From: Pseudomonas sp. MM223
Lineage (GTDB): Bacteria; Pseudomonadota; Gammaproteobacteria; Pseudomonadales; Pseudomonadaceae
Direction: 5' to 3'
Assembly: GCA_947090765.1 (NCBI GenBank)
Contig: OX352322.1
Coordinates: forward strand, 229,501-293,500
DNA length: 64,000 bases
Part shown: piece by piece, positions 11,621 to 29,265 of the stretch
How positions within the stretch are numbered: position 1 is the stretch's first letter
Layout: the number at the start of each line of letters is the position of its first letter
Notes under the pieces: generated by a model
What the model was told of the DNA's origin: nothing
What the model saw: the letters and a program-made list of their open reading frames with translations, nothing else
Database searches by the model: none
Made by a program: the position numbers and the translations under genes

Positions 11621-12916
11621 CTACGGGCAACCGGTCGCGGCCACCTCCTGGCTTGCTTCTTTCAGTGCCGACGCCACGGCGGCGGCGTCATTGGCGGTAT
11701 ACACCCGCCCGCCCGTGTTGCTGGCTGCGCAGTTGGAGCCGGTGCTGGCGCTGATGTTGACCACGTTGATCCGCAGCCGTGGCTGGTTTTTGGCGATCTG
11801 TTCCGACACGCTGCACACGCTGGTGCCGCAACTGTCCCGGCCATCCACGAACATCACGATCACACCATCCCGATCACGGCCGTTCATCTTGCTGGCGGCT
11901 GCTTGCAGGCTGATACCCAGCCCCGTCCCGCCACGTGCGTTCAGGTCGGCCACACGCTTGACCAGGTCTGCGCGCTGGCCTTGGCCGAAAACGCCGTGGT
12001 CCACCGGGCTGCGGCAGCCGTCGAAGGTGACCAGGCGCATGTCCACGCCCTTGTCCAGGTCGCCGATCACTGCGGTCAGCGAGCTTTTTGCCACGTCCAT
12101 GCGGGTGAGCCGTTGCGGCTGGTTGTTGGCCAGCAGTTCATCGACGAAAGGAATGCGGGCCAGCAAGCCGATGTACCAAGGGTCATCTTCCTTTTTCACC
12201 CTGATGCGCTGGTCCATGGAGCCCGAGGTATCCAGCACCACCGCAAATTCCGACGCCTGGAAGCCGCCCCCCGGGGTACAGATTGCGGCCTGCGTATAGC
12301 CCTGCCAGCGCTGGTACAGCACAGACCAGCTGCTGTACAGCCAGTAGAGCAGTAGCAGCAACAGGCCAAACAGCAGCCAGGGCCACAGGCGCAGGCGGCG
12401 GCGTTCGGCCATTACCACGGTGCGTGTCTGGGCGGGTTTTGGTGGTGGAGCGGGTTTTGGCGTGGCCGGCGCTGGCTGTCGCGGTGTCGGAGGAGGTGGC
12501 GACACCACAGGCGGCGCAGTGACAGGTGCCGGCTGCCCCCAGCGAATCACCAGGGGTTCGTCGTTGATGCTGTACAGGTTGGCCAGGTCCGGTTGGCCGA
12601 CCAGCGTGCGCAACGCTTCGGCTGCGGGCGCCTGGCCGCGCCGTTGCAGCTCATCGGCCAACTGGCTGACGGCAGCCTGGCGCTCTGCATAGCGCTTGAG
12701 CAAGGCCGCCTGCTGCTCGCGGCCGAGGGTGGCATACAGATGCGGTTGCCCCTCCAGTTCAGACCACCATTCCAGCACACCGTCGCGGCCCTGCCGGGGT
12801 ATTGCGTACAGGTGAGCGATGCCCGGCGGAAAGTGCTGACGGATCAGCGCCACCCTGAGTTCGAGCGCGCTGGCAGCATCCTGGCTGGCGTGGGTGTCGC
12901 GGTTTACCCTTTGCAT
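11621..12916 (-). CDS. Membrane-anchored vWA protein, copy 1 (srf operon)
   Basis: A 431-residue protein in four parts. Residues 1-128 are a cytoplasmic domain, 130-168 a Pro-rich linker, 178-197 a transmembrane helix preceded by ERRRLRL (N-in), and 222-431 a periplasmic von Willebrand A domain with the metal-binding motif VLDTSGSMD. Six cysteines lie in the periplasmic part (ICT, DGCR, DSCG, VCSV, NCAA, terminal GCP) and are conserved in copy 2. The cytoplasmic domain resembles that of SrfA (see findings). Last gene of the operon, 8 bases after copy 2. The function is unknown; metal-dependent protein-protein binding in the periplasm is inferred. Confidence 0.85.
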   Translation of the reverse strand: MQRVNRDTHASQDAASALELRVALIRQHFPPGIAHLYAIPRQGRDGVLEWWSELEGQPHLYATLGREQQAALLKRYAERQAAVSQLADELQRRGQAPAAEALRTLVGQPDLANLYSINDEPLVIRWGQPAPVTAPPVVSPPPPTPRQPAPATPKPAPPPKPAQTRTVVMAERRRLRLWPWLLFGLLLLLLYWLYSSWSVLYQRWQGYTQAAICTPGGGFQASEFAVVLDTSGSMDQRIRVKKEDDPWYIGLLARIPFVDELLANNQPQRLTRMDVAKSSLTAVIGDLDKGVDMRLVTFDGCRSPVDHGVFGQGQRADLVKRVADLNARGGTGLGISLQAAASKMNGRDRDGVIVMFVDGRDSCGTSVCSVSEQIAKNQPRLRINVVNISASTGSNCAASNTGGRVYTANDAAAVASALKEASQEVAATGCP

Positions 12917-12924
12917 GGTTTGTC

Positions 12925-14160
12925 CTAGTCGCAATCGGCTGTGCTGGAGACTTCCTGGCTGGCAAGCTTGATGGCAGCGGCAACCTGCCCGGCATCGTTG
13001 GCGGAATAGATGCTCCCACCGGTACTCTCGGCGACACAGCTGGCCAGGTTGCTGTTGCTGATATCGACCAGGTTGACGCGCAATCGCGGCTGCTCGCGGG
13101 CAATCCGCTGCGCCACTGCACACACGTCCTGGTCACAGCCGTCGGCACCGTCGATGAACATCAGGATCACCCCATCGCGGTCGCGACCGTTCATGGCCCT
13201 GGCCGCCACATCAAGGCTGGCTGCCAGGGCAGTGCCATCATTGGGTACCAGTGCCTGGATACTTTTGATCAATGCCGGGCGCTGAGCGAGCGAGAACACG
13301 CCATGGTCCAACGGCGCACGGCAGCCATCGAAGGTCACCACGCGCATGTCTACGGCCGGGTGCAGGTCGTTGATCAGGTGGGTGAGGCTGCTCTTGGCCA
13401 CGTCCATGCGTACGGGGGCCTGGGTAAGTTGCGCAACACGCTGCTGATCGATATTCGGATCGTCATTGATGTGCTGGAAGAACCATTGTTCGTCTTCAAG
13501 GGTGGTGGCGACGTTGAGCTGCATCGAGCCCGAGGTGTCGAGCACCACGGAAAACTCGGGCGGCTGTATGCGGGTGTCTTTCACGCAGGCGAAAGGCGTG
13601 GCGGGGCGGTTGCCAAGCCAATGCTGCAGGTAGGGCCAGCCGAACCACAGGGCCAGGGCTAGCAACAGCAGGCCGAGCAGCGGCAGCAAGAACCACGGCA
13701 GCCATACCCAGCGCCGACGTACCACGGGCGCGGGGCGCGGAGGTACCGGGGCGGGCGATGGCTTGACCGGGGCAGGTTCGGCCCAGCGCACGACCAGCGG
13801 TTGGCCATTGATGCTGTACAGGTTGTTCAGGTCGGCAGGCCCGATGAGTTTGCGCAACAGCGCGGCATCGTTGGCCTGGCCCAGGCTTTCCAGTTTGCTT
13901 ACCAACTGGCGTACGGCTTCCTGGCGCTCGTCGTACAGGCGCAGCAAGGCGGCCTGTTGCTCGGCGCCAAGGTCATGGTATCGGTGCGGTTGGCCTTGCA
14001 GTTCCGACCACCATTCGCGCAAGCCGTCCTTGCCGTTGCGTGGGGTGGCAAACAGATGAGCGATGCTCGGGGGAAAATGCCTGACGATGATCGCCATGGC
14101 CTGTTCGAGCACCCGCAGGTCGTCCTTGGCGGGGCTGGTGTCGCGGGTAACCCGCTGCAT
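12925..14160 (-). CDS. Membrane-anchored vWA protein, copy 2 (srf operon)
   Basis: A 411-residue tandem paralogue of the next gene, with the same start (MQRV.RDT), the same domain order and the same six periplasmic cysteines. Residues 1-128 form the cytoplasmic domain (FPPSIAHLFATP; NLYSINGQPLVVRW), followed by a Pro linker, a transmembrane helix at 151-172 after VRRRW, and a vWA domain with VLDTSGSMQ. It differs mainly in the metal-motif loop and linker length. The pair presumably arose by local duplication and may form hetero-oligomers, which is inference. Confidence 0.85.
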   Translation of the reverse strand: MQRVTRDTSPAKDDLRVLEQAMAIIVRHFPPSIAHLFATPRNGKDGLREWWSELQGQPHRYHDLGAEQQAALLRLYDERQEAVRQLVSKLESLGQANDAALLRKLIGPADLNNLYSINGQPLVVRWAEPAPVKPSPAPVPPRPAPVVRRRWVWLPWFLLPLLGLLLLALALWFGWPYLQHWLGNRPATPFACVKDTRIQPPEFSVVLDTSGSMQLNVATTLEDEQWFFQHINDDPNIDQQRVAQLTQAPVRMDVAKSSLTHLINDLHPAVDMRVVTFDGCRAPLDHGVFSLAQRPALIKSIQALVPNDGTALAASLDVAARAMNGRDRDGVILMFIDGADGCDQDVCAVAQRIAREQPRLRVNLVDISNSNLASCVAESTGGSIYSANDAGQVAAAIKLASQEVSSTADCD

Positions 14161-14206
14161 GTGGATATCCTGAAAAGATACGGCAGCCGAAGCTGCCGAT
14201 GAGGTT

Positions 14207-14710
14207 TTACTCGTAACCCAGGCTCAGCTGGAGGCGGCTGACCTGTTGTTGAAGGGCTGCGAGCTTCTGCTTGCGGGCTTCGATCTGGGCGCTACTGGCA
14301 TTTTGCGTGGGTGCGGCCTGGTTAGCCTTGAGCTGTTGCTCCAGGCCGGCGATCTGCTTTTGCACATCGTTTTTGTTGCCATGGCGTGCCTTGAGCGTGC
14401 CCAGCAGGTCGTTCAACGATTTTTCCAGGCTGGCCTGCTGACGCTGCTGGCTTTGCAGGTCCTGGCGAGTCGAGGCCTGCAGCGCACTCAACTGTGCGTA
14501 CACTTCGTTGAACTGGCGGTTCTGTTCCTTGGCGCTGAGCAGTTCCTGCTCACTGTTGCGCACACCTTCGGCATAACCCCCGCCGTAGTCGCAGTTGAGC
14601 TTGCCGATCAAGCTGGCGCTGCTGTCGGAGGCATTGCACTGGGAGGCCGTGGTCGCACATCCGGCAAGGCTGGCCAGCAGTGCCAGGCACAGGCAGTTAC
14701 GTAGAAACAT
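14207..14710 (-). CDS. Lipoprotein with coiled coil (srf operon)
   Basis: A 167-residue predicted lipoprotein. Lipobox LAGC at residues 15-18 (Ala before and after the cysteine; no Asp at +2, so outer-membrane sorting is expected). The body, from about residue 45, is a long Gln/Leu-rich coiled coil. ATG at 14710 follows AAGGAG at 9 bases; a GTG three codons upstream is the alternative. No family recognised. Its position beside the larger lipoprotein and the FGE-like gene parallels TagQ in type VI regulation, by position only. Confidence 0.75.
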   Translation of the reverse strand: MFLRNCLCLALLASLAGCATTASQCNASDSSASLIGKLNCDYGGGYAEGVRNSEQELLSAKEQNRQFNEVYAQLSALQASTRQDLQSQQRQQASLEKSLNDLLGTLKARHGNKNDVQKQIAGLEQQLKANQAAPTQNASSAQIEARKQKLAALQQQVSRLQLSLGYE

Positions 14711-14723
14711 GGCGTTCACTCCT

Positions 14724-15458
14724 TCAGCCCAGGGTGATTGCCGAACGCTGGCTGTAGAGGCCGTCGACCTCCTGCTGCAGCGAGGCGACCTTGGTGTTCA
14801 TCTTGGCGATCTCGGCTTCGACCTTTTGCACTTCGGCCTGGCTGGCGCCGCCGTCACGTTCAAGCTTGGCCACTTGCTGGTACTCGTTGACGCGGGTTTT
14901 CATGTTGTTCAGGTCTTTGCGCATCAACCCGATGTTCTGGTCGATGTTGGCGATGTCTTGCTGGGCCTTGGCCTTGTCCAGGGTCTTGGCTTTCATGCTC
15001 TGCTGGATGCTGGCAATTTGTTGCTTGTCGTCATTGATGACGCGTTGCAGCGTATCGGTACGTTGCGCGACCTTGGCGGTTTCACCCTGCACTTCGGTGG
15101 TCATCGCATTCAGGCGCTCGGTGGTATTGGCATATTTCGCCCGGCGCTGATCGAGGTAGTAGTTGGCGCCCATGGCAACGCCGCACGCGCCGACACCGGC
15201 GATGATCGAACAGGCTGCCTTGTTGCCGGAGTTGGACAGCATGCAGGCAAGAATGCCGGCGCTGGCCGCGATGGCACAGGCCTGGAAGCCAGAAGTTGTG
15301 AAGAATTTGGCATCGTTGCCGCTGGTCAGGCGCGGGTCGACCGTGCCTTGGCCACCGGTCATCGAGCTGCCGGTATTGGCACAACCGGTAACGGCCAGGC
15401 AAGCAGCCATCAGCAGACCCAACCAAGGGTTGATACGGGTGGATGTAGGGAAGTTCAT
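14724..15458 (-). CDS. Lipoprotein with Ala/Gly hydrophobic segment and coiled coil (srf operon)
   Basis: A 244-residue predicted lipoprotein, lipobox VTGC near residue 26 with Ala at +2. It has a cysteine-containing hydrophobic stretch at about 55-100 (ACAIAASAGILACML, ACSIIAGVGACGVAMG), a glycine-zipper-like segment that could insert in a membrane, followed by about 120 residues of coiled coil. No family recognised. Organisation (glycine zipper plus coiled coil) suggests an outer-membrane-linked structural or signalling part. Separated by 25 bases from the upstream FGE-like gene. Confidence 0.75.
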   Translation of the reverse strand: MNFPTSTRINPWLGLLMAACLAVTGCANTGSSMTGGQGTVDPRLTSGNDAKFFTTSGFQACAIAASAGILACMLSNSGNKAACSIIAGVGACGVAMGANYYLDQRRAKYANTTERLNAMTTEVQGETAKVAQRTDTLQRVINDDKQQIASIQQSMKAKTLDKAKAQQDIANIDQNIGLMRKDLNNMKTRVNEYQQVAKLERDGGASQAEVQKVEAEIAKMNTKVASLQQEVDGLYSQRSAITLG

Positions 15459-15483
15459 GGTGTGGCTCCTGGATGTCCTTGGG

Positions 15484-17034
15484 TCAGTGTGCGACGGTCT
15501 TGCAGCTGTTCAGCCATGCGTTGGCATCAATCTTTTGGGTCTTGAGGAACGACATCTGGTTGGCCCAGTGGGTACGCAAGTAGGGCGACAGGTCCTTGAG
15601 GTTCTTGTTGGCCTTGAATGAGCCGTCCAGTACCGGAACCTGGGCTTCGAGCAAGTCCTTGCCGTACAGCGACCCCGACTCCACCAGCGAGCTGGCGTAG
15701 TAGCGGCTGAGCTTGTGCAGGCGCTCCTGCTGTTCATCGAGCTTGACCTTGCGCACGCCGCAGGTCGGGTCTTCTTCGCCGGCCTTGCAGTTGCTGGCGT
15801 AGTTTTTCTGCAAAAAGTCCAGGTACTGGCCGTCATCGAGCATCTTGGTGCAGAGGAAGGCGCCAAGGTTGAGGCTGGCGCGAATCGCCTGGTCACGGGC
15901 TTCCTGCTGCTGCTGGTTGCTGGCGCGCAGCTGGTTCTCGACGGTCTTGAGCTGGTTTTTGAGGGCTTCGTCTTCCACGTTGGAGGCCAGTTCTTCCAGC
16001 GCCTTGACGGTGCCTTTCTGCTTGCTTTCGGCAGCCGGTTGATCGCTGCCCAGGTTGCTCCAGCTCTTTTCGATGGTTTTTACCCGGTCGCGCGAGGTCA
16101 GGGTCGGGGAGACCATGGCCAGGCGCAGGCCGTTGGTCTTCTTGGCCACTGCACCCTCGGCGTTGTAGTACGGCTCTTCCTGGCGCAGCGAGGTGCGCAG
16201 GTCGCCTTCGCTGGTCAGGTAGTTGCCACCGCGCACCACATAGCCACCGGCCTGGCCGTGCTGGCGGTCAAGCTTGTTCAGGCGGAACGGCTCGAACATC
16301 ATCTCGCTGGCATTGCCCAGCATGTCATGCAAGCCCAGCGGGTTAGGCTTGAGCAGCCCGCTCAGCTGCAACTGGCCGTTGGCAGACTGCGCGCCGGCGA
16401 ACCATTCGTAGGCATTCAGGCCTTCGGGCATGGGGTAGCGGCCATCGCGGAACTCGGCCGTACTGACTTGCAAGCCGCCACGCGCGGCGAACTCCCACTC
16501 CACTTCGGTTGGCAGGCGCAAAAAGCCTTGGGCGCCATCTTCCCGCGGCAGCTTGTCGGGTGCATTGGCACGCAACCAGCGGTTGTACTTGTCGGCAGCC
16601 TGCAGGGCGTCCAGCCACGACACCGATACAATCGGCAGGCGCTGCTTGTTGGAAGCGGTCGGGCAGGTTTCGTCCATCAACGCCTTGTACTGCAGCTGGC
16701 TCATCTCGTATTTGGCGAGCAGGTAATAGCGCGATTTTTCGCCCTTGGCGCTGGTGAAGCTGCCCGCAATGAAGGCCGGGCGGGTCTGCTCGACATAGCC
16801 CCACTCGGCGCTGTCCTGGCCGATGTTGATGGGGTAGTCGTCCAGTGGGCCGGCCACCGGGATCATCACCTTGCGAAACACCATGGCGCCGTCACAAGGC
16901 ATGGGCAGTACCACGTCATCGGCATCGGCCATCGGGTTGTAGTATTTTTCTTCCCAGGTTGCCGCTGTTGCTTGCAGCGCAAAGCCGAGAGCAAGTGGCG
17001 CCAGAAGCAGGCGGCTGTAGGCTTTAGAGTTCAC
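15484..17034 (-). CDS. Periplasmic SUMF1/FGE-like protein, TagR-like
   Basis: A 516-residue protein with signal peptide (cleaved after about residue 24, QATA-ATW). A sulfatase-modifying-factor fold spans residues 45-315 with YEMS..QY.ALM, P.V.VSWLDAL..A..YN.W, LRLPTEVEWEFAARGG, NPLGLHDMLGNASEMM, VVRGGNY and NGLRLAMV. The C-terminal 200 residues are helical, partly coiled coil. The two catalytic cysteines of formylglycine-generating enzymes are absent from the RGG region, so enzyme activity is unlikely. TagR of the type VI PpkA pathway has the same fold in the periplasm. Its 3' neighbours are the lipoproteins, and the permease gene upstream overlaps its start by 11 bases. Confidence 0.82.
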   Translation of the reverse strand: MNSKAYSRLLLAPLALGFALQATAATWEEKYYNPMADADDVVLPMPCDGAMVFRKVMIPVAGPLDDYPINIGQDSAEWGYVEQTRPAFIAGSFTSAKGEKSRYYLLAKYEMSQLQYKALMDETCPTASNKQRLPIVSVSWLDALQAADKYNRWLRANAPDKLPREDGAQGFLRLPTEVEWEFAARGGLQVSTAEFRDGRYPMPEGLNAYEWFAGAQSANGQLQLSGLLKPNPLGLHDMLGNASEMMFEPFRLNKLDRQHGQAGGYVVRGGNYLTSEGDLRTSLRQEEPYYNAEGAVAKKTNGLRLAMVSPTLTSRDRVKTIEKSWSNLGSDQPAAESKQKGTVKALEELASNVEDEALKNQLKTVENQLRASNQQQQEARDQAIRASLNLGAFLCTKMLDDGQYLDFLQKNYASNCKAGEEDPTCGVRKVKLDEQQERLHKLSRYYASSLVESGSLYGKDLLEAQVPVLDGSFKANKNLKDLSPYLRTHWANQMSFLKTQKIDANAWLNSCKTVAH

Positions 17035-18247
17035 GCAGGCTCTCCGCAGGTTGTATGCGTATGGCGCGCAAGGCGCCGATCAGGGCGACCAGGCCGGCGA
17101 CCAGGAAGGCCAGCAGCAGGGCGACCAAGCCATGCCATACGGTGATGTGGCAAATGAAGGCGCCGGTTGCCTGGCTGCTGACCAGCAACCGGTCGAACAG
17201 CAGGCTGCCGAGGTAGTAGCTGCCGAGGCCGCCCAGGTAGCCCACCAGGCTCAGCACGAGTGCCTGAAGCACCACGTAGGCCGATACCGCGGGGCTGCTG
17301 AAGCCCAGCAGGCGCAGCACGGCCAGGTGGCGGCGCTTGCGATCGATGTTGGCCAGGAAGGCGCCGACCAGCGAGGCGATGCAGCCGATCAGGGCGGCCC
17401 CGGCAATTACGCCGAAAATCAGCCCAAGCACGTGGTTGATCGCCTTGACGCTGTTGATTTCTGCCAGGCGGCTGGCGGTTTCGATGCGCTGTTCGTTCAG
17501 CCAGCGCTCCAGCGGCGCTACGCTGTCGATGTCCCGCGCATACACCCGGGCCCGGGCGTAGCCGACGTTCAGGGCATCAAGGGCCTGGCCACTGCTTGCC
17601 CCGAGGCTGGCGACCAGATAACCGTCGCGATAATATTCCAGCTCCATCAAAAGTTCGGGGCTGACGAAGGCTGCAGGGCGGGCGAAGCGCACCGAGCTGA
17701 CGATGGCACGCACTTGCAACGTGCGCTCGCCACGCTCGTTGACTTCGTTCAGGCGCCGGGCAACGCGCAAGCGCAGGGTGTCGCCGACCTTGGCTTCGAG
17801 GCGTTGAGCGGCTCGTTCGCTGAGAATCACCTGCTCGGGCGCCAGCTCGCTCAGGTCTGTTGCCAATAAAGGATCGCCGGCCCGGGTAGGAATGACCTCG
17901 ACGTTATCGGCGAAGCGGCCATGTGCGCCCAACAGGTCGGCCTGGGTGTTCAGCGAGCGGGTCTGGCCGATGGCGAAGCCCACCTCCGGGCGTGCCTGCA
18001 ACCGTTGCAACCAGGCTTGGTCGAAATGCCCGCTGCTGAGCATCTTGACCTCAAGGTTTCGCGGGTCGCTGAGCAGTTCCTGTTGCAATTGGCTGACCAC
18101 CCCGTGCTTCAGGCCGAACAGCAACAACAGGGGGGCAATGACGGCAACCAGCGAGGCGGCCATGCACAAGGAAACGTTACGGTCGTGCCAGAGATCGGCC
18201 AGGGATAGTCGGGCCAGCAGCGCCAGGCGTTTATGCCACGGGTTCAA
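17024..18247 (-). CDS. ABC transporter permease, MacB/LolC fold (TagS-like)
   Basis: A 407-residue inner-membrane protein with the four-helix MacB/FtsX layout: one transmembrane helix near 28-50, a periplasmic domain of about 230 residues, then three helices at about 280-305, 325-350 and 365-390. The FtsX-like core contains LIGCIASLVGAFLANIDRKRRHLAVLRLLGF. This fold performs mechanotransmission or lipoprotein handling rather than import. Together with the overlapping ATPase gene and the FGE-like and lipoprotein genes it matches the TagS/TagT arrangement. The substrate or signal is unknown. Confidence 0.85.
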   Translation of the reverse strand: MNPWHKRLALLARLSLADLWHDRNVSLCMAASLVAVIAPLLLLFGLKHGVVSQLQQELLSDPRNLEVKMLSSGHFDQAWLQRLQARPEVGFAIGQTRSLNTQADLLGAHGRFADNVEVIPTRAGDPLLATDLSELAPEQVILSERAAQRLEAKVGDTLRLRVARRLNEVNERGERTLQVRAIVSSVRFARPAAFVSPELLMELEYYRDGYLVASLGASSGQALDALNVGYARARVYARDIDSVAPLERWLNEQRIETASRLAEINSVKAINHVLGLIFGVIAGAALIGCIASLVGAFLANIDRKRRHLAVLRLLGFSSPAVSAYVVLQALVLSLVGYLGGLGSYYLGSLLFDRLLVSSQATGAFICHITVWHGLVALLLAFLVAGLVALIGALRAIRIQPAESLREL

Positions 18248-18929
18248 AGCGTGTTTCCCCTTGACCGTTGATGGCAGCCAGGCGTGGCAGGCCGAAGTGT
18301 TCGACCAGTGCCCAGTCGTGGGACACGATCAAGGCGCTCAGCCCTAGCTCAGCCACCAGTTGCAGCAGTAGTTCGAACAGCCGCTCTGCATTGTGCGGGT
18401 CGAGTGCGGCGGTGGGTTCGTCGGCCAACAGCACCCTGGGTTCATGGGCGATGGCACGCACGCAGGCCACCCGCTGGCGCTCGCCGATGGACAGCGCCTG
18501 GGGCAGCTTGCCCAGCAGTGGTGCCAGGCGCAGTGCTTCGATGGCTGTGTCCACCGCCGTGCTGGCAGGTGGCAGGCCGAGCAGGCGGCGTGGCAGCAGG
18601 ATGTTGTCGCGCACACTGAGAAAAGGCAGCAGCCCGCCGTTCTGCAGCACAAAGCCAAGCTCGCGCGAACGCAATGCTGCCAACGCCGGCTGTTGGTCAC
18701 TGGCCAGCAGGCTGGCCACATCCTGGCGTTGTGGGCCAAGCCTGTAGTGCGTCAGTTGCTCAGGCTTGAGCAGCAGGCCAATGGCCTCCAGCAGCGTGCT
18801 CTTGCCGCAGCCGCTCTCGCCTGTGATGGCACGCACTTCGCCGGGTTGCAGGCACAGTGCGTCCAGCCGTACCCGGTGAGCCTGCGATCCTTCGCCTCGA
18901 ACGACTTGTAGTCCCTTGATATCGAGCAT
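18231..18929 (-). CDS. ABC transporter ATP-binding protein (LolD/TagT-like)
   Basis: A 232-residue cytoplasmic ATPase. Walker A is GESGCGKST near residue 38, Q-loop VLQNGGLLPFLSVRDN, signature variant LSIGERQRVA, Walker B VLLADEPTAALD, and switch histidine SHDWALV. The signature reads SIGER rather than SGGQ, a tolerated change. The stop overlaps the permease start by 17 bases, so the two form one transporter. Starts 6 bases after the stop of the upstream vWA gene. Confidence 0.9.
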   Translation of the reverse strand: MLDIKGLQVVRGEGSQAHRVRLDALCLQPGEVRAITGESGCGKSTLLEAIGLLLKPEQLTHYRLGPQRQDVASLLASDQQPALAALRSRELGFVLQNGGLLPFLSVRDNILLPRRLLGLPPASTAVDTAIEALRLAPLLGKLPQALSIGERQRVACVRAIAHEPRVLLADEPTAALDPHNAERLFELLLQLVAELGLSALIVSHDWALVEHFGLPRLAAINGQGETRFEPVA

Positions 18930-18935
18930 ATGGGG

Positions 18936-20888
18936 TCAGGGCATCATTTCCAGCGGTACCGGGTAGACGTTGTCGCGGCTGTCACTGCCTGGCGCCAGGG
19001 CAACCCAGCGATCGACATCGGCGTTGTAACGTTGGTAATGGCGCAGCTTGGTGCTGAGGCTGCGGATGAATTTCTCCTGGGCCAGGCCATCCCAGCCCTT
19101 CCAGGTTTCTTCGTCCAGGTTCAGCACTTCGCTCTGGTAGGGCAGGTCTTGCAGGTACTCGCCAAGCACGCCCAGGTCTGCCACGCGGGTGGTCGAGCCC
19201 TGTTTCAGCTGGTTGGGGTCGGCACCCATGGTTGCCGCAACCGAACGCAGGCGGGTGAACATCTCGTCTGGCGAAATCATGCCTTCGTTGGCGGCATCCA
19301 GAATCTGCTTGAGTACATCGCTCAGGTCGCTGAGTTGGGCCTTGGTCAGCAGCACGCGCACATCGGTGGTCGGTACATTCTGTTTGACCAGGTCGCGGTC
19401 GCTGATCCAGGCCTGGAACACTGGCGGCGCCTGGGTTCCGTTGGCCTTGCCGAGGTAGGCCAGCTGCATGGCATGGCCAATCAGGGCGGCATCCTCGAGC
19501 ATTTTCTTCTCGGCAGGGTCGGCCTTGGCATTGGTTGCGCTGCCGATGGCCGCCTCGCCCATGTAGGCAGCCCGCACTTGTTGGGTGATGGCGGCAGCCA
19601 GGCCGTCGACCTTGCGGCCAAAGGCCTCTACATCGCCGGCATTGACCGGGTAGTACAGCGAGGTGTTGGTGCCCGGGTAATTCGACAGGGTGCGGTACTG
19701 CGCTTCGGCGGCGCTGTGGTTCTTGGCGCCGCTCGGGGTTTTCAGGTGCAGGGTGTACAGGGCTACGCCAGGGTTGCTGGCCTCGATCTTGACCTGTTCG
19801 GCGCCAAGGCCGGTGCTCGACAGCTTGTCCCCCCCGTCGATGGCGCCGGCATCGGTGATCAGCACTACATAGCGTGCGCCAAACTGGCTCCAGTCGATCT
19901 GGTCGACGGCAGACATCACACCAGCGTAGGCATCTTCGTTGAACTCGCTGCTGGACACCTTGGCCTGCTTCAGGTCCGCGACCTTGGCCATGAAGTCGGC
20001 ACCGTCCTTCACCGCGTTGGGGTCGGCGTACATCTTGCTGACGTATTCCAGGCCCGGCACGGCCTTGGTGCTGGAACGGTAGGCGACCAGGCCGAACTTG
20101 ACCTGCTTGCCGAGGTTTTCCTTTTCGATCTGCCCGTACACGCGCTTGATCGCTTCACGGGTGCGATCGATGTACGGGTCCATCGAAATGGTCGAGTCGA
20201 TGACGAACACCACGGCTGCACTGAACGCCTTCAACTGTTGGTTGGCAGCGGCCTGGCCAGGCGCAGGTGTTGCGGCTGCGGCACTGTCGGCCTTGCTGAC
20301 CGATGCCACATTGAGAATGCGCGTGCGGAAGCCTTCTTCGGTCATCACTTCTTCGCCGCTGAGCACGGGCAGCAGGTAGAAGTTTTTCTGCAGGTCGACG
20401 AAGTATTCGGGCTCTTCGGCCAACACGCCGGGCGCCTCGGTACCGTGCTTGAGCTTGGCACGTAGCGGGGCCACATGGCTGACAGGGTCGGGGGCGTTGA
20501 GAATGCCTTCGAGCTGGTTGCGCTCCTTGAAGAACATCAGCCGGTCACGGTTGGCGGGGTTGGTAAACGCCAGGGTCAGCTGCATCTTCCATTCGACGGT
20601 GCAATCGGCAGGCAACCAGCCGATGCTCTTGCCCTGGGTGTCAGGCCCAACCCGCAGCCACTCGCGGGCGTCGGCCTGGGCGCGTTCATACACGTAGAAG
20701 CGGCTGAAGGTCGGTTGTGCGGCGCCAGGTGCAGCCCCGGCGTTATCGCTCAGCTTGCAGCCTGGCGTGGTCAACACGCGCTGAAACAGGGTTTTCTTGC
20801 CGTCCTGCAGCAGGGGTTTGTCGGCAGCCTGCAGGGCAGGGCTGAGCGACAAGGCCAGCAGCGCGGCGCCAATGCTACGCATCTTCAT
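18936..20888 (-). CDS. Periplasmic vWA protein, PpkA C-terminal-like
   Basis: A 650-residue protein with signal peptide (ALQA-ADK near residue 20). An N-terminal region includes LFQRVLTTPGCKL, FYVYERA, W..VG and WKMQLTLAFTNPANRDR, then at about 220-430 a vWA domain with VFVIDSTISMD (metal motif D-S-T-I-S) and VVLITDAGAIDGG, then a helical C-terminal region. The order LFQRVLT / FYVY / FTNP / vWA recalls the periplasmic half of the type VI kinase PpkA as I remember it, but there is no kinase domain and no transmembrane anchor. Fourth gene of the srf operon after srfC. A periplasmic sensor or assembly role is inferred. Confidence 0.8.
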   Translation of the reverse strand: MKMRSIGAALLALSLSPALQAADKPLLQDGKKTLFQRVLTTPGCKLSDNAGAAPGAAQPTFSRFYVYERAQADAREWLRVGPDTQGKSIGWLPADCTVEWKMQLTLAFTNPANRDRLMFFKERNQLEGILNAPDPVSHVAPLRAKLKHGTEAPGVLAEEPEYFVDLQKNFYLLPVLSGEEVMTEEGFRTRILNVASVSKADSAAAATPAPGQAAANQQLKAFSAAVVFVIDSTISMDPYIDRTREAIKRVYGQIEKENLGKQVKFGLVAYRSSTKAVPGLEYVSKMYADPNAVKDGADFMAKVADLKQAKVSSSEFNEDAYAGVMSAVDQIDWSQFGARYVVLITDAGAIDGGDKLSSTGLGAEQVKIEASNPGVALYTLHLKTPSGAKNHSAAEAQYRTLSNYPGTNTSLYYPVNAGDVEAFGRKVDGLAAAITQQVRAAYMGEAAIGSATNAKADPAEKKMLEDAALIGHAMQLAYLGKANGTQAPPVFQAWISDRDLVKQNVPTTDVRVLLTKAQLSDLSDVLKQILDAANEGMISPDEMFTRLRSVAATMGADPNQLKQGSTTRVADLGVLGEYLQDLPYQSEVLNLDEETWKGWDGLAQEKFIRSLSTKLRHYQRYNADVDRWVALAPGSDSRDNVYPVPLEMMP

Positions 20889-21937: not shown

Positions 21938-21942
21938 TGCAA

Positions 21943-24652
21943 TCAACTCGCTTGAAAGGTGTTCAGCAACACCGCCAACTGGCGTCGCTGCTCGGTGGTA
22001 ATTTCCGGGTCGGCGCCGCTCTTGGCGTTTTCCTGGGTCAGCCAGGCGAGGCCCGACAGCCAGTCAACCAGGAAGCGCTGTTCATGGTGCGGAGGCTGCT
22101 CTGGCAGCATCGGCAGCTCGCCCACCGGCACGCTCTGGTAGAAGTCGAACACCGGCTCGCGCGACCCCAGCAGGCTGTTCGGGCGTTCTGCGGCGGGTTT
22201 GTCCAGCAAGCCGAACCAGGACAGGAAGTCGCGCATGGCCAGCTGCACCGTCAGCACCTGGCGCTGGACCATCTGGTCACGGCGCATGCCGTTCAGCACC
22301 CGGCGCATGACGGCGCTGTCCAGCTGCTCGATGAACAGCGGGCGGCGCACCGCGCTGACCAACTCTTCGACCAAGGCCTCGACCACTTCACGGCTGATGC
22401 GCAGGCTGCGAAGGCGCATGGGTTGTGTGCCCAGGTCGCGCATGTGCTTGATCCACGCCTTCAGCGCCGCGCGGACAAAGCGCTGCTCAGAGGTAAGGCG
22501 TTTGGCCAGCGGCTTGGCAGCAGGCGCTGGTGCTGCGGCAGGGCTATTGGCGAACAGGTTGCCGAAGCTGATGGCCGGGGCCTTGTTGGCCGGAGCCTGT
22601 GGCGGCTTGTTCAGGCGCTTCAGCGGTGTCGCCGTCAATGCCGTCGATGTCGTACACGCCGCCCAGGTAAAGGTCGCGCAGCTGTTCGACAGGCACCTGC
22701 AAGGCATGGATCAGTTCGCTGATCGCGTCCGGGTCGGCGCCCAGGTTGTCGAGCAAGTACTGGGTTTTTTCCCGCTTCTTGTTCAGCAGCTGTTCGAAAT
22801 CTTCTTCGCGCCAGGTGTTCAGGCCGTGTTCCAGCAGGTCGGTGCGGCACTGCTCCAGCTGTTCTTCGATACGGGTGAGCTTGAAGTCGATGTTGCTGAT
22901 GCCCCGGAAGCTGCCACTGAAGCGGCTGATACCGCCGTCATTGAGTTCGAGCATCGCGGCCCAGGCGTCAGCCGGGTCCTTGATGTGCCGCAGCACCGAC
23001 GGGCTTTGCGCAAAGCATTGCTGCAACTGTACAAGGCGAGGGGCATGGCGCTCGTTCAGGCAGGTTTCTTCGCCGTTGCCGATATCGCGCTCGATGAACG
23101 CGGTATCCAGGCGCGGCTTGCGCACCAGGTAAGTGTTGTTGAACGGTACGCCGGACCAGTCCTTCATCCACTCCTGGCTGCCGAAGCGCTCGATCATGGT
23201 GAGTTTCATCATGTTCTCGCAGCCTTCGGGCAATTGCCCCTCGCTCAGGGCGAGCGTGTTGCCGATGAAACCATCGAGCATGGTCAGCGCCCAGATCAGG
23301 CCGGGGGTGCGCTGGCTGCGTTCTTTGGGCGTGGCGCCTTGTGTCTTGTGGATCCAGCGGGTCAGCACTGGGCCGACGCTGACCACTTCGCTTTGCTTGA
23401 ACGAACTGGTGCACAGCACCAGGCCGTTCATCTGCTGGGCGTCGGTATAGCGCTCGAACAAATAGGCAACCTTGCCACGCAGGATCAGGCTGGCGGCCGG
23501 GTTGACCTCTTCGACCACATCAGGGCTTGCCGCATCTTCGATACGCAGCAGCTTCTGGCGCGTGCGGTAACCGGGGAAGTCGAGCAGGTCGACTTCCTCT
23601 ACTACCGGGTCCTTGGGGCTGTTGGTCAGGCGGAAAGTCATCTCGGCAGTCAGTGCCGCCAGTTGCGCAACCGACAGTGATACGCTGCCCTGCACCTTGT
23701 CACCCAGCAGCGGCAGTACGTTTACGGGCAGGTCGCGGCCAGTGCCGAGGCGGCCGAGAATATCGACGTTCATGATGCTGTTGGCCTGGGTGTAAGCGCC
23801 GTTTTCTTCCTTCACCAGCACGCTCAGGGGGGCGTAGACGGTGTCGGGGAAACCCAGCTTCTGCAGGCCGCCAACCAGCAGTTCATAAATTTCGGTGAGG
23901 GCGTCCTGTTCACCCCACAGGACCGAAAACAGCTTGGCACGCTGACGCGGGTTCAGGCGCGGTGCCAGCTTGATCACCCGTGGCCAGTAAAGCTCGTTGA
24001 GCTTGCGCACCGACTTTTCGTAGTTACCTTTGAGGTAGTCCCACAGGGCGACTACGTCATCACCGTTCACGCCCGGTTGCAGGCCCTCGTTTTCGCGGCC
24101 CTCGAAGCCGGCCAGCAGGGCCTGGATACGTTCGTCGGTGTAGGTGTAATCCAGCTTTTCCTGGTCGAAATCTTCGAACCAGGCATTGGACAGGATCTTG
24201 GCCACTTCGATTTCGCTGAACAGCTTCAGCTCGACCGGGTGGTTGGCATCCGGGCTGGGCTTGGCACGCCGGCTGAAACGGGTGACCAGGCCGGTGGCTT
24301 CCTTACCCAGGCCGGTCGGGTTCACATGTTCGATGAAGTCCAGGGTGCGGCCACCGAAATCGGTTTCCAGGCGGCCGCTGCGGTCAGCGGCCAATGCCGA
24401 GATCAGGTACGACTTGCCCGCCTGGGACAGGCCGAAGAAGCCGATCACCATGGGGGTGGAAGCGGCACGCTGCAGGTCCTTGGCGCGGTTGCGGGCCTGG
24501 CGCAGGCGCAGGTTGAGGCCATCGGCCTCGGCCTCGACGCTGGCAGCATTGCCACGCACCTGCTCGATCCAGTCCAGGGCCTCGCCGGCGCCTTTGTGAA
24601 TGGCGCCCCAGGCACCCATCAACTGCTGTTGCTTTGGCGTAAGGTCGCTCAT
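21943..24652 (-). pseudogene. srfC: SrfC, dynamin-like P-loop GTPase, frameshifted
   Basis: Member of the SrfC / Virul_Fac family, named from Salmonella SsrB-regulated srfABC. Walker A GLSQAGKS is at residues 74-81, and a G3-type DFPG lies in the block DLLDFPGYRTR. Long helical regions follow, as in dynamin superfamily proteins. The first frame runs 24652 to about 22630 and the second to 21943; removing one base near GGCGACACC (about 22630) joins GVYDIDGIDG to TPLKRLNKPP. The total of 2710 nt is one over a codon multiple, giving about 903 residues when repaired. The start overlaps the srfB stop as ATGA. I read it as one gene with an error rather than two genes, because the second part has no start of its own. 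Confidence 0.82.
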
Positions 24653-27600
24653 TTTCCTTTGACGTTCCCGCTGTCGAGCCAATAGTCGCTGTCACTCAAG
24701 CTCATGGTCGGCATGGTGTTGAGTGAGAGTTCAAGATCCCGGTCGAAATCGAAGTCGGCATCCTGGATGTTCGATTCCAGCTTCTGGATGACCAGCTTGT
24801 CGCTGATCAGCCCCTGGTCACGTTCTTCCTGGTCGAACTGCTCGATTTCCAGGCGAATGCGCAGCACTGGAGCCGCGCCGTCCTTGCCCACCGCGTGGGA
24901 AAACTTTGCGCTGCCCGAGGACGTGAAACGCAGGGTGTACAGCGGTGAGGCAGACCAGCGTTCGGCGGCCAGTTGGCGGTAGCCCAGGTGCATGTCGCCG
25001 CGCATTTCCAGCCACGGCGTACCGCGTTCCTCGCCTTCGCCAACGATAGGCAGCTCGATCAGCCCCTTGTCGGACTTGAGGTCGTGGTAGAGCACGTCGG
25101 CACGTTTGATAGTGCCGGCGTTGTCGATTTGGCCAAAGTGCTTGATGACCGAGTACGGCTTGAGCGCGGCAGTGCGGAAATAGAAGTTCGGCACGCTGTG
25201 CTTGGAGCAAAGCAGGCAGATCATCGCGCCCACCGAGGCGGTGCTTTTCGGGTCGTCGATCAGGCCATTGCGGTGGAACGGGTACCAGCCACCGGTGCGG
25301 TAGTTCTGCATCGGCAGGATGCGCCCTGGCGGCAGTGGCAGGCGCTGGCGAATGAACGCCTGGATACCGGGCAGGCGCGAAGGGCGGCCGGTCAGCAGGA
25401 GCATGTCGCAGGGGTAGTTGAACACCACCTCGCACAATTCGCCGAGCACCTTGGTGATGTTGATCTGGCCACCCATGAAGGCAGCGTGGACACGCTCCAG
25501 ATCGAACACAATCGGTGTCTGCAGCAGGTCCAGAGCGCCGTCGCGGCCGACTTCGCGGCGTACGGCGGCATTGACGAACGCCAGTACGCTGTCATTGATC
25601 TGCGCCTCGCCCAACACCTGCTGCCAGGTCTGCTCTACGGCAGCCTGCGGTTGTGCCGGGTCAAACTGCTCATAGGCCTTGAGCAGGGCCAGGCCCAGCG
25701 GTACGAACACTTGCAGGTTCAATTGCTGGCGCAGCAAGCGTTCCTGGGCCGTGGCATCGCCATTGCCGCACAGGCGCGACATCAGTGCATCGGGTGCCGG
25801 AACACCCGCCGTGCGCAGTGCATTGGCGAAGGACGGCAGGATGAACTCCTGGATCACGTCCAGCAGGATGTCATCACCGGCAATCTTGAAACCGTCACGG
25901 AAGCGCTGGGTCGGCACGATGTGCACGTTGGCACCAGCACCGCCACCCGCGCCACGGTCCAGGCGGTAATCGGTGATCACCAGGTCGGTGGTACCGCCGC
26001 CGATGTCGATGGTCGCCAGGGTGATCTGTTCGTGCTCTTGCTTGTCCGGGCGGGCCAGCGTGGCAAAGAACTCCTCCGGGTGGCCGGCAAAGTTTTCGTT
26101 GACTTCGTTGTACAGGTAAACCAACTGGCCGCAGCTGGCCTCGTCCCACTCCACGCGCACGCTGGGGAACGGGGTACGGGTCTTGACGTCCTTGCCCTTG
26201 AACGGGTTGCTCTCGTCCTGGTGCCAGCCGAGGCTCTTCCAGACCAGCCCGATGGCTTCGTACAGGCGGTTGCTGAGCAGGCTGCGTTCAGCCTGGGGCA
26301 TGCCAGGCGGCACGGTCAGGGTAATGCTGTTGAGCTCGACGCGGCACTCGCGCATGGCCTTGGCGCGAACGCTGGGCCGGGCTGTTGATCTGGCTCAGCG
26401 CCTGGGTCACCACTTCGGCCAACATGAAGGTCATCAGGTTGCTGCGCGAATAGCGCGGGTTGAAGACCGGCATGTCGAAGGGCTTGAGGTACAGCGGCTG
26501 GCCACGGTCGTTGATCAGGTTGGCGAATGGCGCGGCAACGGCCATTGGCTCCTTGTCGGTCTTGACGTAGGCGGTGTTGAAACGCCAGCCATGGCCGTAG
26601 GCCTTTTCATCCCACAGGTAGCGTTTGGGGCTGGAGAGGCCGGTCGAACCTTCGGTGCCGCGGTTGCGGCTGGCCAGGCGGCTGGCTTCTCCACCGACAC
26701 GGGCGATGGTTGGCCACTGGAAGGCGTTGTGGCGGCCGCTCTTGATCGACAGGTGGTCTTTGCCGAAGGCGGCGTGGGTGAACTCGACCCGGCTTTCGAA
26801 GGCCTGGTTGTAGACCTTTTCCGGCTCGCTCAGGTCGCGCAGCGCCAGTACGTAGTTGTGGCGCATGCCCGAACCCGCCTGGCCATGGTCCTCGATGAGG
26901 ATGCCGCAGGTGCGCGAGTTGCCAACGTCCAGCACCAGGTCCACCGGGATCGGCTTGACGACGCCATTGGCCTCGTTGGCGATCACCTTGATTTCCGGTA
27001 TCTCGACCTTCGGCTTTTCGCTGCTCTGCTCGGCCGGCACCGGGCGGCGCAACAGGCTTAGCAGGTTCAGATAGTGGCCAAGGTGGCGGTTGCCCTGCAG
27101 GTCACGATCCAGGCGCTCGCGCGTCCACTCTGCGCGGGCCTCGGTGTACACCTCGGTCAGCCAGTCGCGGATCCAGGTGTGGGTCAGGAACCAGCCATAT
27201 TCACGGGCACTGCACGCCAGCTTGAACGCCACGCCGGAGCGCACGTCGTCTTCGTTGGGCGCCAGGTACGGTGCGCCGGTAACCACTGGCATGGTGCGGC
27301 TGTCGAAGCCGAGGGTGAGGCGATGGGTGTTGCCGTCGACATCGGGCTCTGCGAGCTTGACCAGGCGCATGCGCGCCCAGTTGTTCGGGCCTTCGTCAAA
27401 GCGATAAGGCGGTGTGAAACGCAGGACAGGGATCGGTAACCAGATCCCGTCCAGCAGCTTCAGGCTGTCTTCCATGGGCAGGCGGAAGTGGCTCTCATCG
27501 CTGGTGTCGAACTCCACCTGCACCACTTTGTCTGGCTCAGGCTCATAGAAGTCCTTGTACTCCTTGGACCACAGCAGGCGTGTCGGCACCATGCCATTGT

Positions 27601-27727
27601 TGAGCTGGACGAATTTGCCGGTCTGCTCGCCATCCGGGCCGAGACGCAGGGCGAAATCCATGAATTGAATTCCGGTATCGCTGACCAGCGTGACCGTTTC
27701 TTCGAACTGGGTGATTTCGGGCAACAT
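24649..27727 (-). pseudogene. srfB: SrfB, actin/Hsp70-fold ATPase, frameshifted
   Basis: SrfB family protein (Pfam SrfB), about 1025 residues when repaired. The N-terminal frame (MLPEITQFEETVTLVSDTG) includes the phosphate-1-like DLVLDVGNSRTCG. The C-terminal frame contains the phosphate-2-like ATIDIGGGTTDLVITDY and the ribose-binding-like LLLTGRPSRLPG, all hallmarks of the actin/Hsp70 ATPase superfamily. The frame breaks near 26366, where QINSPAQRS should continue as AKAMRECRVELNS. The total of 3079 nt is one over a codon multiple. Follows srfA by 20 bases and overlaps srfC by 4 bases. Confidence 0.85.
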
Positions 27728-27747
27728 CTTCTGCGTTTCTCGTGTGA

Positions 27748-29265
27748 TTAGCCGGCTTTTTTCATTTGAATGTCGAAGCCTTTGGCACCGTAGTTGGCGT
27801 TGCAATCGGCAGCGCCGTTGGCTTTGGCTTTGCAACCCACTTGCGGCAAGTCATAGCTGCTGCCGTCGGCACAAGAGGCCTGGCCAGCGCTGTTGATCGA
27901 CAACAGGCCGCCTTGCATGGCCGCGCCAACCGGCGCGTGGCACTGCACGTTGTCCGGGCGGGTGACCGTGGCCTGGCCCTTGCCGTTCTGGAAGTCGTAC
28001 TTCAGGCGCAGGGGCTTGCCAGTGCCGGCTTCTTGAATGCCTGCACCCGCCCATTTGCCATTGAGGAAGTCCGCGTTACCGTCGGCCGCATCTGGCGGAA
28101 TGCTCAAGTCATCAGGTTGCGGCGGCTGAGCGCTGGTTTGCCCTTGCTCATCGGCCAGCTGTGGTGGCGCAGGCGGCGTGTTCCCTGGCGTCGAGGCTTC
28201 GGGCTCGCCTGGCGGTGGCGTGTCGGCTGCTTGCTCTGGCGCTGGCGGCTGCTCTGGCGCTGGCTGTGTTTCTGGCGTGTCTTGCGCAGGGGTGTCGGCA
28301 TTATCCGCCGGCGCTTGGCTATCGCCTTGTGGCGCGGCACCGCCGGCATCGGCTGAGCCGCTCGGCAGGCTAGCCGCGTTGCCGGTCTGCTCAGCCGCCA
28401 CGTCCGGGGCAGCTACACCCGTTGCACCGTTCGCAGCGCCAACCCTGCCCGACGATTGTGTTGGCACTTGAGCTTGGTAGTTGTTTGACCCAGAGGTATC
28501 GCGGCCAAGGTCCGGGATGCCTGGGGCGGAAAGGTTGACCCCAGGGATGCAGCCGCGCAGCCCGAACAGCAGCAGGAGCAGCAGCGGCAACAGCAGCAAC
28601 AACGGCAATAGCCAGCGCCAGTTGCGCCACCACGGCAGGCGTGCGACGGCAGCGGCTGGCGCAACCGCTGCTGCTGCCGGAGCAATGGGCGCGGCTGGGG
28701 GAACCGGCGGCGCGGCCACGGGTTCGGCGATGGGGGCGGTACGCGGATACAGGCAGTGCAGGGGCTGCCTGCTGCGCTCGGCACCGGCATGGATGAAGCC
28801 CCAGAAGGTCAGCACAGGGCGGCCATCGACCAGGTAGACGAAGTTTTCGTCAGGGAAGGGCACCACACAGGTCAGCAGCTTGCCGAACACGGCGTTGTCA
28901 CCTTCGGCGGCCTTTCTGGCCGTTGCCGAGGGCTGGCCGTTGGCGTCCAGGCCAAGCAAGGTGTTGCTCAGGGCGTTGATCTTGCTTTGCAACACCTCGA
29001 GCTGCGCACGTGCTGGCGCGCGTTCTTCTTCGGTGGCGCTGCTCCAGGGGATTACATCGCCTGGGCGGTCGCTGTACCAATCGATGGTACGGCCCTGCTC
29101 ATCGCTCTGCGGGATGGCCAGGTGCTCGATCAGCTCCGGGTGCTCCGGGTACTTGCGGCGAATCGCTTCGCGAATCTGCAAAGCAGCGCGATAGACGGGC
29201 TGGCCAGTCTCGCCCAATGCGGTGAAGTGTTCACTTCTACCGCTGCGTAGTAATACTCCGCGCAT
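27748..29265 (-). CDS. srfA: SrfA family protein, first gene of the srf operon
   Basis: A 505-residue protein. Residues 12-170 form a cytoplasmic domain (FTALGETGQPVYRAALQIREAI; TIDWYS; NFVYLVDGRPVLTFWG). Residues 172-210 are Pro/Ala-rich, 218-236 a transmembrane helix after WWRNWRW, 240-410 a long Pro/Ala/Gln/Asp-rich linker, and the C-terminal 110 residues a small periplasmic domain with four cysteines (QCHAP, SCADG, GCKA, DCNA). The phrase GETGQPVY..ALQ is the SrfA family signature. ATG at 29265 was chosen because the upstream extension is AT-rich intergenic DNA. Its promoter must lie in 29266-29475. Salmonella srfA was described as SsrB-regulated; biochemical role unknown. Confidence 0.85.
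   Translation of the reverse strand: MRGVLLRSGRSEHFTALGETGQPVYRAALQIREAIRRKYPEHPELIEHLAIPQSDEQGRTIDWYSDRPGDVIPWSSATEEERAPARAQLEVLQSKINALSNTLLGLDANGQPSATARKAAEGDNAVFGKLLTCVVPFPDENFVYLVDGRPVLTFWGFIHAGAERSRQPLHCLYPRTAPIAEPVAAPPVPPAAPIAPAAAAVAPAAAVARLPWWRNWRWLLPLLLLLPLLLLLLFGLRGCIPGVNLSAPGIPDLGRDTSGSNNYQAQVPTQSSGRVGAANGATGVAAPDVAAEQTGNAASLPSGSADAGGAAPQGDSQAPADNADTPAQDTPETQPAPEQPPAPEQAADTPPPGEPEASTPGNTPPAPPQLADEQGQTSAQPPQPDDLSIPPDAADGNADFLNGKWAGAGIQEAGTGKPLRLKYDFQNGKGQATVTRPDNVQCHAPVGAAMQGGLLSINSAGQASCADGSSYDLPQVGCKAKANGAADCNANYGAKGFDIQMKKAG

What the first reader, a model, noticed from the sequence alone, without database searches (positions are those of the whole stretch)
11621..29265. 18-kb srfABC operon joined to a TagQRST/PpkA-like periplasmic module without any secretion genes
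Eleven same-strand genes with overlaps or short gaps: srfA, actin-like srfB, dynamin-like srfC, a membrane-anchored protein, a periplasmic vWA protein, ABC ATPase and MacB-type permease, FGE-like protein, two lipoproteins, two membrane-anchored vWA proteins. In type VI secretion the set TagT-TagS (ABC), TagR (FGE-like), TagQ (lipoprotein) and PpkA (periplasmic vWA) transmits an envelope signal to a kinase. Here the parts of that relay sit with srfABC, with no kinase, phosphatase, FHA, or Tss gene. A cytoskeletal/GTPase engine in the cytoplasm linked to periplasmic vWA sensors looks like an undescribed trans-envelope machine.
Basis: partly seen in the sequence, partly recalled or inferred. Interest (0 to 1): 0.88.

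Follow-up and report, generated by a model that had tools for sequence, protein, structure and literature searches.

The report
Kinase-less envelope sensor wired to SrfABC
A twelve-gene bacterial operon joins the parts of a known outer-membrane damage sensor, without the kinase and secretion machine it normally serves, to the poorly understood SrfABC proteins, and close relatives of the whole set move between bacteria as one unit.

Summary
Twelve same-strand genes (not eleven) lie at 29265-11621, spaced -17 to +46 bp. In this assembly srfB and srfC are each split into two frames. The ABC ATPase, permease, FGE-like protein, one lipoprotein and the 650-aa vWA protein are homologous to TagT, TagS, TagR, TagQ and the periplasmic part of the kinase PpkA, in the same order as in 10 of 11 Pseudomonas ppkA loci. 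Kinase, phosphatase, TagF and TssM were found in 0 of 108 srf loci but in 10 of 11 ppkA loci. The periplasmic vWA protein of the sampled srf loci is one clade, apart from PpkA and from a stand-alone module seen here. A bitopic protein (memD) shares its periplasmic domain with that module. SrfA and the terminal vWA proteins share an N-domain. An intact SrfC relative has a dynamin-like predicted fold. A complete 17-kb cassette occurs, 99.7-99.9% identical, on Klebsiella plasmids and in E. coli. The neighbourhood was reported in 2013 and mentioned in 2019, so it is not undescribed; I found no paper on the missing kinase, couplers, single origin or mobility. Best reading: an envelope-damage sensor rewired from kinase/T6SS to SrfABC, perhaps to remodel membrane. 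The output is untested.

The parts
27748..29265 (-). srfA: one predicted TM span, N-domain (inferred cytoplasmic) shared with the terminal vWA proteins, C-part inferred periplasmic (start at 29265 chosen by family match)
   Evidence: NF040486 SrfA_fam 2.6e-116; hydropathy and hhalign to vwaK N-domain Prob 99.6
26288..27727 (-). srfB, first piece (frame broken in this assembly)
   Evidence: PF07520 positions 1-455, 2.5e-177
24649..26355 (-). srfB, second piece
   Evidence: PF07520 positions 454-991, 3.1e-202
22544..24652 (-). srfC, first piece (GTPase part; frame broken in this assembly)
   Evidence: PF10139 positions 1-656, 9.3e-250; dynamin-like fold of the intact relative L140
21943..22707 (-). 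srfC, second piece
   Evidence: PF10139 positions 668-875, 9.2e-40
20885..21937 (-). memD (name used here): bitopic protein; N-terminal beta-sandwich (inferred cytoplasmic), Pro-rich linker, TM, C-terminal helical Sel1/TPR-like domain (inferred periplasmic) with four conserved Cys
   Evidence: alignments, model mean pLDDT 83.6, hhalign to the partner of the stand-alone module
18936..20888 (-). vwaE (name used here): secreted vWA protein (signal peptide read by eye), PpkA periplasmic part without kinase
   Evidence: 38-41% identity over about 630 aa to 17 PpkA-type proteins and 34% to one more; D-x-S/T-x-S in 75 of 75; tree
18231..18929 (-). abcF: TagT-like ABC ATPase
   Evidence: PF00005; colinear homologue in 10 of 11 ppkA loci
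17024..18247 (-). permG: TagS-like MacB/FtsX-type permease
   Evidence: PF02687, PF12704; 10 of 11 ppkA loci; tree
15484..17034 (-). fgeH: TagR-like FGE-fold protein with signal peptide (by eye); no Cys in the stretch where catalytic FGE has two (recalled motif), 0 of 97 rows
   Evidence: PF03781 2.7e-31
14724..15458 (-). lipI: TagQ-like lipoprotein
   Evidence: lipI profile hits the lipoprotein after tagR in 10 of 11 ppkA loci, E 7e-15 to 3e-5; one of these is NF041250 VI_TagQ, 523.8 bits
14207..14719 (-). lipJ: second lipoprotein, coiled coil
   Evidence: lipobox LAGC (sequence); conserved next to lipI
12925..14160 (-). vwaK: bitopic protein, SrfA-type N-domain, TM, vWA (inferred periplasmic)
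   Evidence: PF13519; NF040486 2.1e-8 on residues 31-126, below cut-off; hhalign and hydropathy
11621..12916 (-). vwaL: tandem paralogue of vwaK (TM-like stretch by eye; under the threshold of the scan)
   Evidence: PF13519; NF040486 1.9e-7, below cut-off; 46% identity to vwaK

Best explanation
The operon encodes a trans-envelope stress sensor of the TagQRST-PpkA type whose output has been changed. Shown here by homology: lipI = TagQ-like lipoprotein, fgeH = TagR-like, abcF/permG = TagT/TagS-like, vwaE = PpkA's periplasmic vWA part as a free protein with no kinase. Inferred: as in P. aeruginosa, outer-membrane damage is read by TagQ/TagR and passed to the vWA protein. Because the vWA protein is no longer fused to a kinase, the signal crosses the inner membrane through memD, a bitopic protein whose C-domain it shares with the partner of a stand-alone vWA-ABC module, and perhaps through SrfA and VwaK/L, which carry a common N-domain on different periplasmic heads. 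In the cytoplasm it acts on SrfB (probably an actin/Hsp70-type ATPase) and SrfC (dynamin-like GTPase). The most likely output is local membrane remodelling or sealing at the damaged site, rather than firing a T6SS.
Confidence: 0.5

Rival explanations
1. SrfABC is a toxin or effector that acts on other cells, and the Tag-like module is a sensor that triggers its release.
For: Published cytotoxicity of Xenorhabdus SrfABC on insect and HeLa cells (PMC6950479, abstract and introduction); the 2013 authors suggested PpkA could trigger export of SrfC (PMC3608642, passage).
Against: Nothing annotated as a secretion gene in the 12-gene run or in the 17-kb cassette. SrfA has a predicted TM span and SrfC is a large dynamin-like GTPase, unusual for secreted toxins. 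The vWA protein often named PpkA has no kinase here. The operon occurs in Azotobacter, Halomonas and Zwartia, not known to me as animal pathogens.
Confidence: 0.15
2. The module regulates a T6SS encoded elsewhere in the genome, acting in trans.
For: The module is the T6SS regulator's homologue; 10 of 16 srf genomes in the family sample, including this one, have tssC.
Against: 6 of 16 have no tssC, against 18 of 18 PpkA-type genomes with it. No kinase to phosphorylate Fha. The cassette also sits on plasmids; the 37-kb stretch of one that I looked at has no annotated T6SS gene (its gene table is incomplete).
Confidence: 0.1
3. It is an anti-phage or anti-plasmid defence unit that senses envelope breach and remodels or closes the membrane.
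For: Mobile accessory cassette; type I restriction-modification genes lie between srfB and srfC in Azomonas; B. [quoted passage not shown]
Against: No PADLOC match except of the ABC ATPase to generic ATPase models, which is inconclusive; the R-M insertion was noticed in one genome only.
Confidence: 0.15
4. The ABC permease exports or extracts an envelope component (LolCDE/MacB-like) and the rest is an envelope-maintenance machine unrelated to damage sensing.
For: abcF and permG resemble LolD and LolCE best in NCBIfam, all far below cut-off; the stand-alone module has only partner, vWA, ABC and permease in common.
Against: Matches are far below the equivalog cut-offs; TagST of the T6SS is part of a signalling module in the published model (PMC11881912, passages).
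Confidence: 0.1

Closest known systems
TagQRST-PpkA threonine-phosphorylation pathway of the H1-T6SS of Pseudomonas aeruginosa
   Same: [quoted passage not shown] compared with unnamed Pseudomonadaceae genomes, not with PAO1 itself)
   Different: No kinase domain, PP2C, TagF or TssM beside it; the vWA part is a free protein; a bitopic protein (memD) is present
srfABC-tagQRST-ppkA neighbourhood of host-associated Deltaproteobacteria (PMC3608642)
   Same: The same gene set, mostly without T6SS machinery
   Different: There the vWA gene was called ppkA and discussed as a kinase; here it has no kinase. Whether theirs has one was not tested here
SrfABC of Salmonella and Xenorhabdus
   Same: SrfA, SrfB and SrfC families
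   Different: Reported as swarming factor or toxin; whether the Salmonella locus lacks the Tag genes was not tested here
Bacterial dynamin-like proteins (SynDLP, BDLP, IniA)
   Same: Predicted fold of an intact SrfC relative
   Different: No Tag or vWA partner is mentioned in the titles and abstract starts listed. LeoA, another dynamin-like protein, is likewise called a GTPase virulence factor there (PMC4159319, abstract start)

Membership tests
TagQRST-PpkA (TPP) module | TagT/TagS ABC transporter | tested here: met
   Colinear homologues in 10 of 11 ppkA loci; permease tree
TagQRST-PpkA (TPP) module | TagR FGE-like periplasmic protein | tested here: met
   PF03781 in both; profile hit in 10 of 11 ppkA loci
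TagQRST-PpkA (TPP) module | TagQ outer-membrane lipoprotein | tested here: met
   lipI profile to TagQ, 10 of 11 loci; the L127 copy is NF041250. The window's lipI itself is not listed for NF041250
TagQRST-PpkA (TPP) module | PpkA periplasmic vWA part | tested here: met
   34-41% over about 630 aa in 18 genomes
TagQRST-PpkA (TPP) module | Ser/Thr kinase domain of PpkA, PP2C phosphatase, TagF, TssM | tested here: not met
   0 of 108 srf loci; each in 10 of 11 ppkA loci
SrfABC operon | SrfA, SrfB, SrfC families adjacent | tested here: met
   srfB and srfC each in two frames in this assembly
Dynamin superfamily (SrfC) | Dynamin-like fold with P-loop GTPase | tested here: met
   Model of the intact relative L140, not of the window's broken gene; TM-scores are low
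Dynamin superfamily (SrfC) | GTP-dependent membrane remodelling | not testable with these tools
   Needs biochemistry
Actin/Hsp70-type ATPase (SrfB) | ASKHA fold and ATPase motifs | tested here: inconclusive
   Conserved DxGNSRT, DIGGGTTD and TGRPS stretches look like ASKHA motifs from recall; no PDB sequence match; not folded
Type VI secretion system | Tss core genes in the locus | tested here: not met
   No Tss family above cut-off in the run; TssM in 0 of 108 srf loci
Known anti-phage systems | Match to PADLOC models | tested here: inconclusive
   Of 10 proteins or pieces scanned only the ABC ATPase matches, to generic ATPase models; permG, lipI, lipJ and vwaL were not scanned

The most novel reading that the evidence does not exclude
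A self-contained, mobile envelope-damage repair machine: a TagQRST-type sensor reads outer-membrane breach, a free vWA protein and bitopic couplers carry the signal across the inner membrane without phosphorylation, and an actin-like/dynamin-like pair (SrfB/SrfC) assembles at that spot to remodel or reseal the membrane. T6SS retaliation, SrfABC and a minimal stand-alone module would be three outputs of one ancient periplasmic receptor.
Probability: 0.3. Interest if true: 0.88.

Novelty: new variant of a known kind. Interest (0 to 1): 0.62.

Why it matters
SrfABC has carried the label 'virulence factor' with no agreed function (PMC3608642 calls it unclear). Placing it under a kinase-free copy of a known damage sensor gives a concrete, testable hypothesis, corrects database names that call the vWA protein a Ser/Thr kinase, and suggests that the T6SS damage sensor is one branch of a wider receptor family. 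Near-identical copies of the whole cassette on Klebsiella plasmids and in E. coli suggest that it has spread recently as a unit.
Full report
Observation. Twelve minus-strand genes run from 29265 to 11621 with spacings between -17 and +46 bp (starts chosen by me). They are srfA, srfB, srfC, memD, vwaE, abcF, permG, fgeH, lipI, lipJ, vwaK, vwaL (from memD on, the names are mine). Pfam and NCBIfam place SrfA, SrfB, SrfC, the ABC pair, the FGE-like and the vWA proteins. In this assembly srfB and srfC are each split in two overlapping frames. srfC is one open frame in the 15 other srfC genomes of the family sample, srfB in the 14 whose fetched stretch reaches it, and a near relative of SrfC is intact. 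A tssC elsewhere in the same genome is also split, so sequencing errors are likely, though not proven; a few other loci have broken srfB or srfA.

Is it TagQRST/PpkA? Yes, by homology and order. In 148 Pseudomonadaceae genomes vwaE matches 34. Strong matches (62-81% identity, apart from the window itself) lie in the genomes that have srfC, 16 of 16 (one of them only as a contig-end fragment). Eighteen genomes have a 34-41% match in frames of 1,012-1,263 aa, with one contig-cut frame of 756 aa (G400 has both forms); one genome has only a weak match. Eleven loci of the second kind were fetched. In 10 of 11, homologues of abcF, permG, fgeH and lipI follow in that order on the same strand; L133 has none of the four. 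In L127 the long protein has a protein-kinase domain and the genes before it are a PP2C phosphatase, TagF and TssM; its lipoprotein is NCBI's TagQ (523.8 bits). So abcF, permG, fgeH, lipI and vwaE correspond to TagT, TagS, TagR, TagQ and the PpkA periplasmic part.

What is missing. A kinase profile from the PpkA proteins and single PP2C, TagF and TssM queries find nothing at E 1e-5 in 108 srf loci (2.23 Mb; at least 10 of the 108 repeat another locus) or in 21 stand-alone loci; each is found in 10 of 11 ppkA loci. At least 9 of the 120 listed relatives of vwaE are named 'serine/threonine protein kinase' or PpkA by a source although they are 647-664 aa long and no kinase domain is listed for them: a carried-over name. 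tssC is present in 104 of 148 genomes, in 10 of 16 srf genomes and in 18 of 18 PpkA-type genomes (Fisher p 0.006). The srf form therefore does not need a T6SS.

How fixed is the set? A SrfB-profile scan of named genomes kept 80 loci of at least 575 relatives. Where the contig is long enough, srfC is present in 77 of 77, memD in 75 of 76, vwaE, abcF and permG in 73 of 74 each, and fgeH in 72 of 74. The misses come from two loci, L193 and L196, where extra sequence pushes the rest beyond the 10-kb flank; the other copies of these loci (L110, L114) show the missing genes. The hosts include Pseudomonas, Halomonas, Aeromonas, Pantoea, Erwinia, Rouxiella, Proteus, Gilliamella, Pasteurella, Burkholderiales and Defluviicoccus. 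In the Aeromonas, Pantoea, Erwinia, Rouxiella and Siccibacter loci the lipI-lipJ-vwaK block stands before srfA; in Proteus vwaK stands before srfA and lipI after fgeH. Reduced forms: seven loci of G136's order (L042, L235-L240) show srfABC, vwaE and the permease but no FGE or lipoproteins; my ORF picking misses memD in five and the ATPase in three of them. L121 and L241 show srfABC-memD-vwaE only. In that order SrfB is found in 14 of 201 genomes: 8 have vwaE, 3 divergent ones (L242-L244) do not in the fetched stretch, and 3 could not be judged (two contig ends, one weak match).

A wider receptor family. In the class sample vwaE matches 30 of 369 genomes: 4 with srfABC (one split over contigs), 22 without, 4 weak. 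I fetched 21 loci from 20 of the 22. Most carry a stand-alone module: a small bitopic protein, vwaE, ABC ATPase and permease. Leaving these last three out, the bitopic partner is the only neighbour shared by nearly all: 17 of the 18 loci compared, the next cluster reaching 5. The vwaE tree of 75 proteins gives one srf clade (43 rows, 98), one PpkA clade (11 rows, 99) and a stand-alone clade of 18 (100); three other rows called stand-alone fall elsewhere, two on long branches and one (L059, on a 5-kb contig) beside PpkA. The permease tree also gives one srf (41 rows) and one PpkA (10 rows) group. The join of srfABC to the sensor is thus old and single in this sample. The D-x-S/T-x-S motif of a metal-binding vWA site is kept in 75 of 75. 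None of 97 FGE-like proteins has a cysteine in the 25-residue stretch where a catalytic FGE has two (motif recalled), so fgeH/TagR is probably a binding protein.

Couplers. memD has a predicted N-terminal beta-sandwich, a Pro-rich linker, one TM and a C-terminal helical domain (mean pLDDT 83.6) with four conserved cysteines. Its C-domain is homologous to the partner protein of the stand-alone module (hhalign Prob 97.2, E 3.7e-11; N-domain controls 0.1-0.2). In PpkA the kinase and the vWA part are one chain. SrfA and the terminal vWA proteins share an N-domain (Prob 99.6, E 1.6e-23; NF040486 also hits vwaK and vwaL below its cut-off). A hydropathy scan finds one span in srfA, memD and vwaK; vwaL falls under its threshold. 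Which side faces the cytoplasm is inferred. The operon thus has three or four single-span proteins that could link periplasmic heads to the cytoplasm.

Mobility. SrfB of Siccibacter (L182) is identical to that on Klebsiella plasmids. A complete cassette with homologues of eleven of the genes (one terminal vWA) plus one further small reading frame is 99.7-99.9% identical over 17.1 kb between a K. pneumoniae plasmid, an E. coli chromosome and Siccibacter. In E. coli ET565 it lies in a tRNA-Phe island between two IS1 copies. With the cassette as query, 114 of 72,556 plasmid records and 31 of 5,426 E. coli genomes cover at least 80% of it, out of 119 and 31 with any match. A set that travels whole is likely to work as a whole.

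Mechanism. Published work shows that TagQRST-PpkA answers outer-membrane damage in P. aeruginosa (PMC11881912, passages), and a discussion proposes that TagR acts on PpkA's periplasmic domain (PMC6082577, passage). SrfA, B and C of Xenorhabdus form a complex (PMC6950479, abstract). A review says that polymyxin lowers srfABC expression through Rcs and that PmrAB activates it (PMC6543913, passage). My reading is that the same sensor here feeds a membrane-acting SrfB/SrfC pair through memD and the SrfA-type proteins. The parts list and the missing kinase are shown; the direction of signalling and the output are inferred.

Novelty. The neighbourhood is in print (PMC3608642, passages; PMC6950479, introduction). 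Searches of the held library showed, in the titles and abstract starts listed, no paper on the missing kinase, the couplers, the shared SrfA domain, the SrfC fold or the cassette; only the best 15 to 30 papers of each search were listed. PMC6344628 (passages) reports a dynamin-like protein in Pseudomonas pseudoalcaligenes needed for growth in fungal exudate; whether it is SrfC I did not check. Rickettsial 'Srf' proteins and Bacillus surfactin srfABC share only the name (recalled).

Noticed in passing
L045-L058, L060, L062, L064, L069: A stand-alone four-gene module (bitopic Sel1-like partner, vWA protein, TagT/TagS-like ABC pair) without kinase, TssM or srfABC beside it; apparently a family of its own.
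   Followed up: partly
L249 11681-30603; L248 12992-29847: A complete srf cassette between two IS1 copies in an E. coli tRNA-Phe island, and nearly identical on a Klebsiella pneumoniae plasmid.
   Followed up: yes
G000:C1:3498545-3499449: One of two tssC genes of this genome is split in two frames, as srfB and srfC are in the window; suggests assembly errors.
   Followed up: no
L114 13582-19901: In Azomonas agilis type I restriction-modification genes lie between srfB and srfC.
   Followed up: partly
L110 13515-14738 and 6574-7950: Azotobacter-group loci have extra reading frames between srfB and srfC and between vwaE and the ABC gene, with no Pfam family above cut-off.
   Followed up: partly
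L242-L245, L067: Divergent SrfB/SrfC pairs with no vWA/Tag gene found in the stretch held (L245 and L067 end at a contig end); in L244 a PAS/MCP-domain protein lies nearby.
   Followed up: partly
L246 12629-16027, L247 217-3567: A longer SrfC-like protein (about 1,120 aa) with no SrfB match beside it.
   Followed up: no
L061, L063: vWA, permease and FGE-like genes together without srfABC and without a PpkA-type kinase; long branches in the trees.
   Followed up: no
protein ids P0005, P0037, P0052 and others: Kinase-less vWA proteins named 'serine/threonine protein kinase' or PpkA in databases.
   Followed up: yes
window 30422-30498: tRNA-Arg(CCG) about 1.2 kb upstream of srfA; whether it marks an island edge was not resolved.
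   Followed up: no
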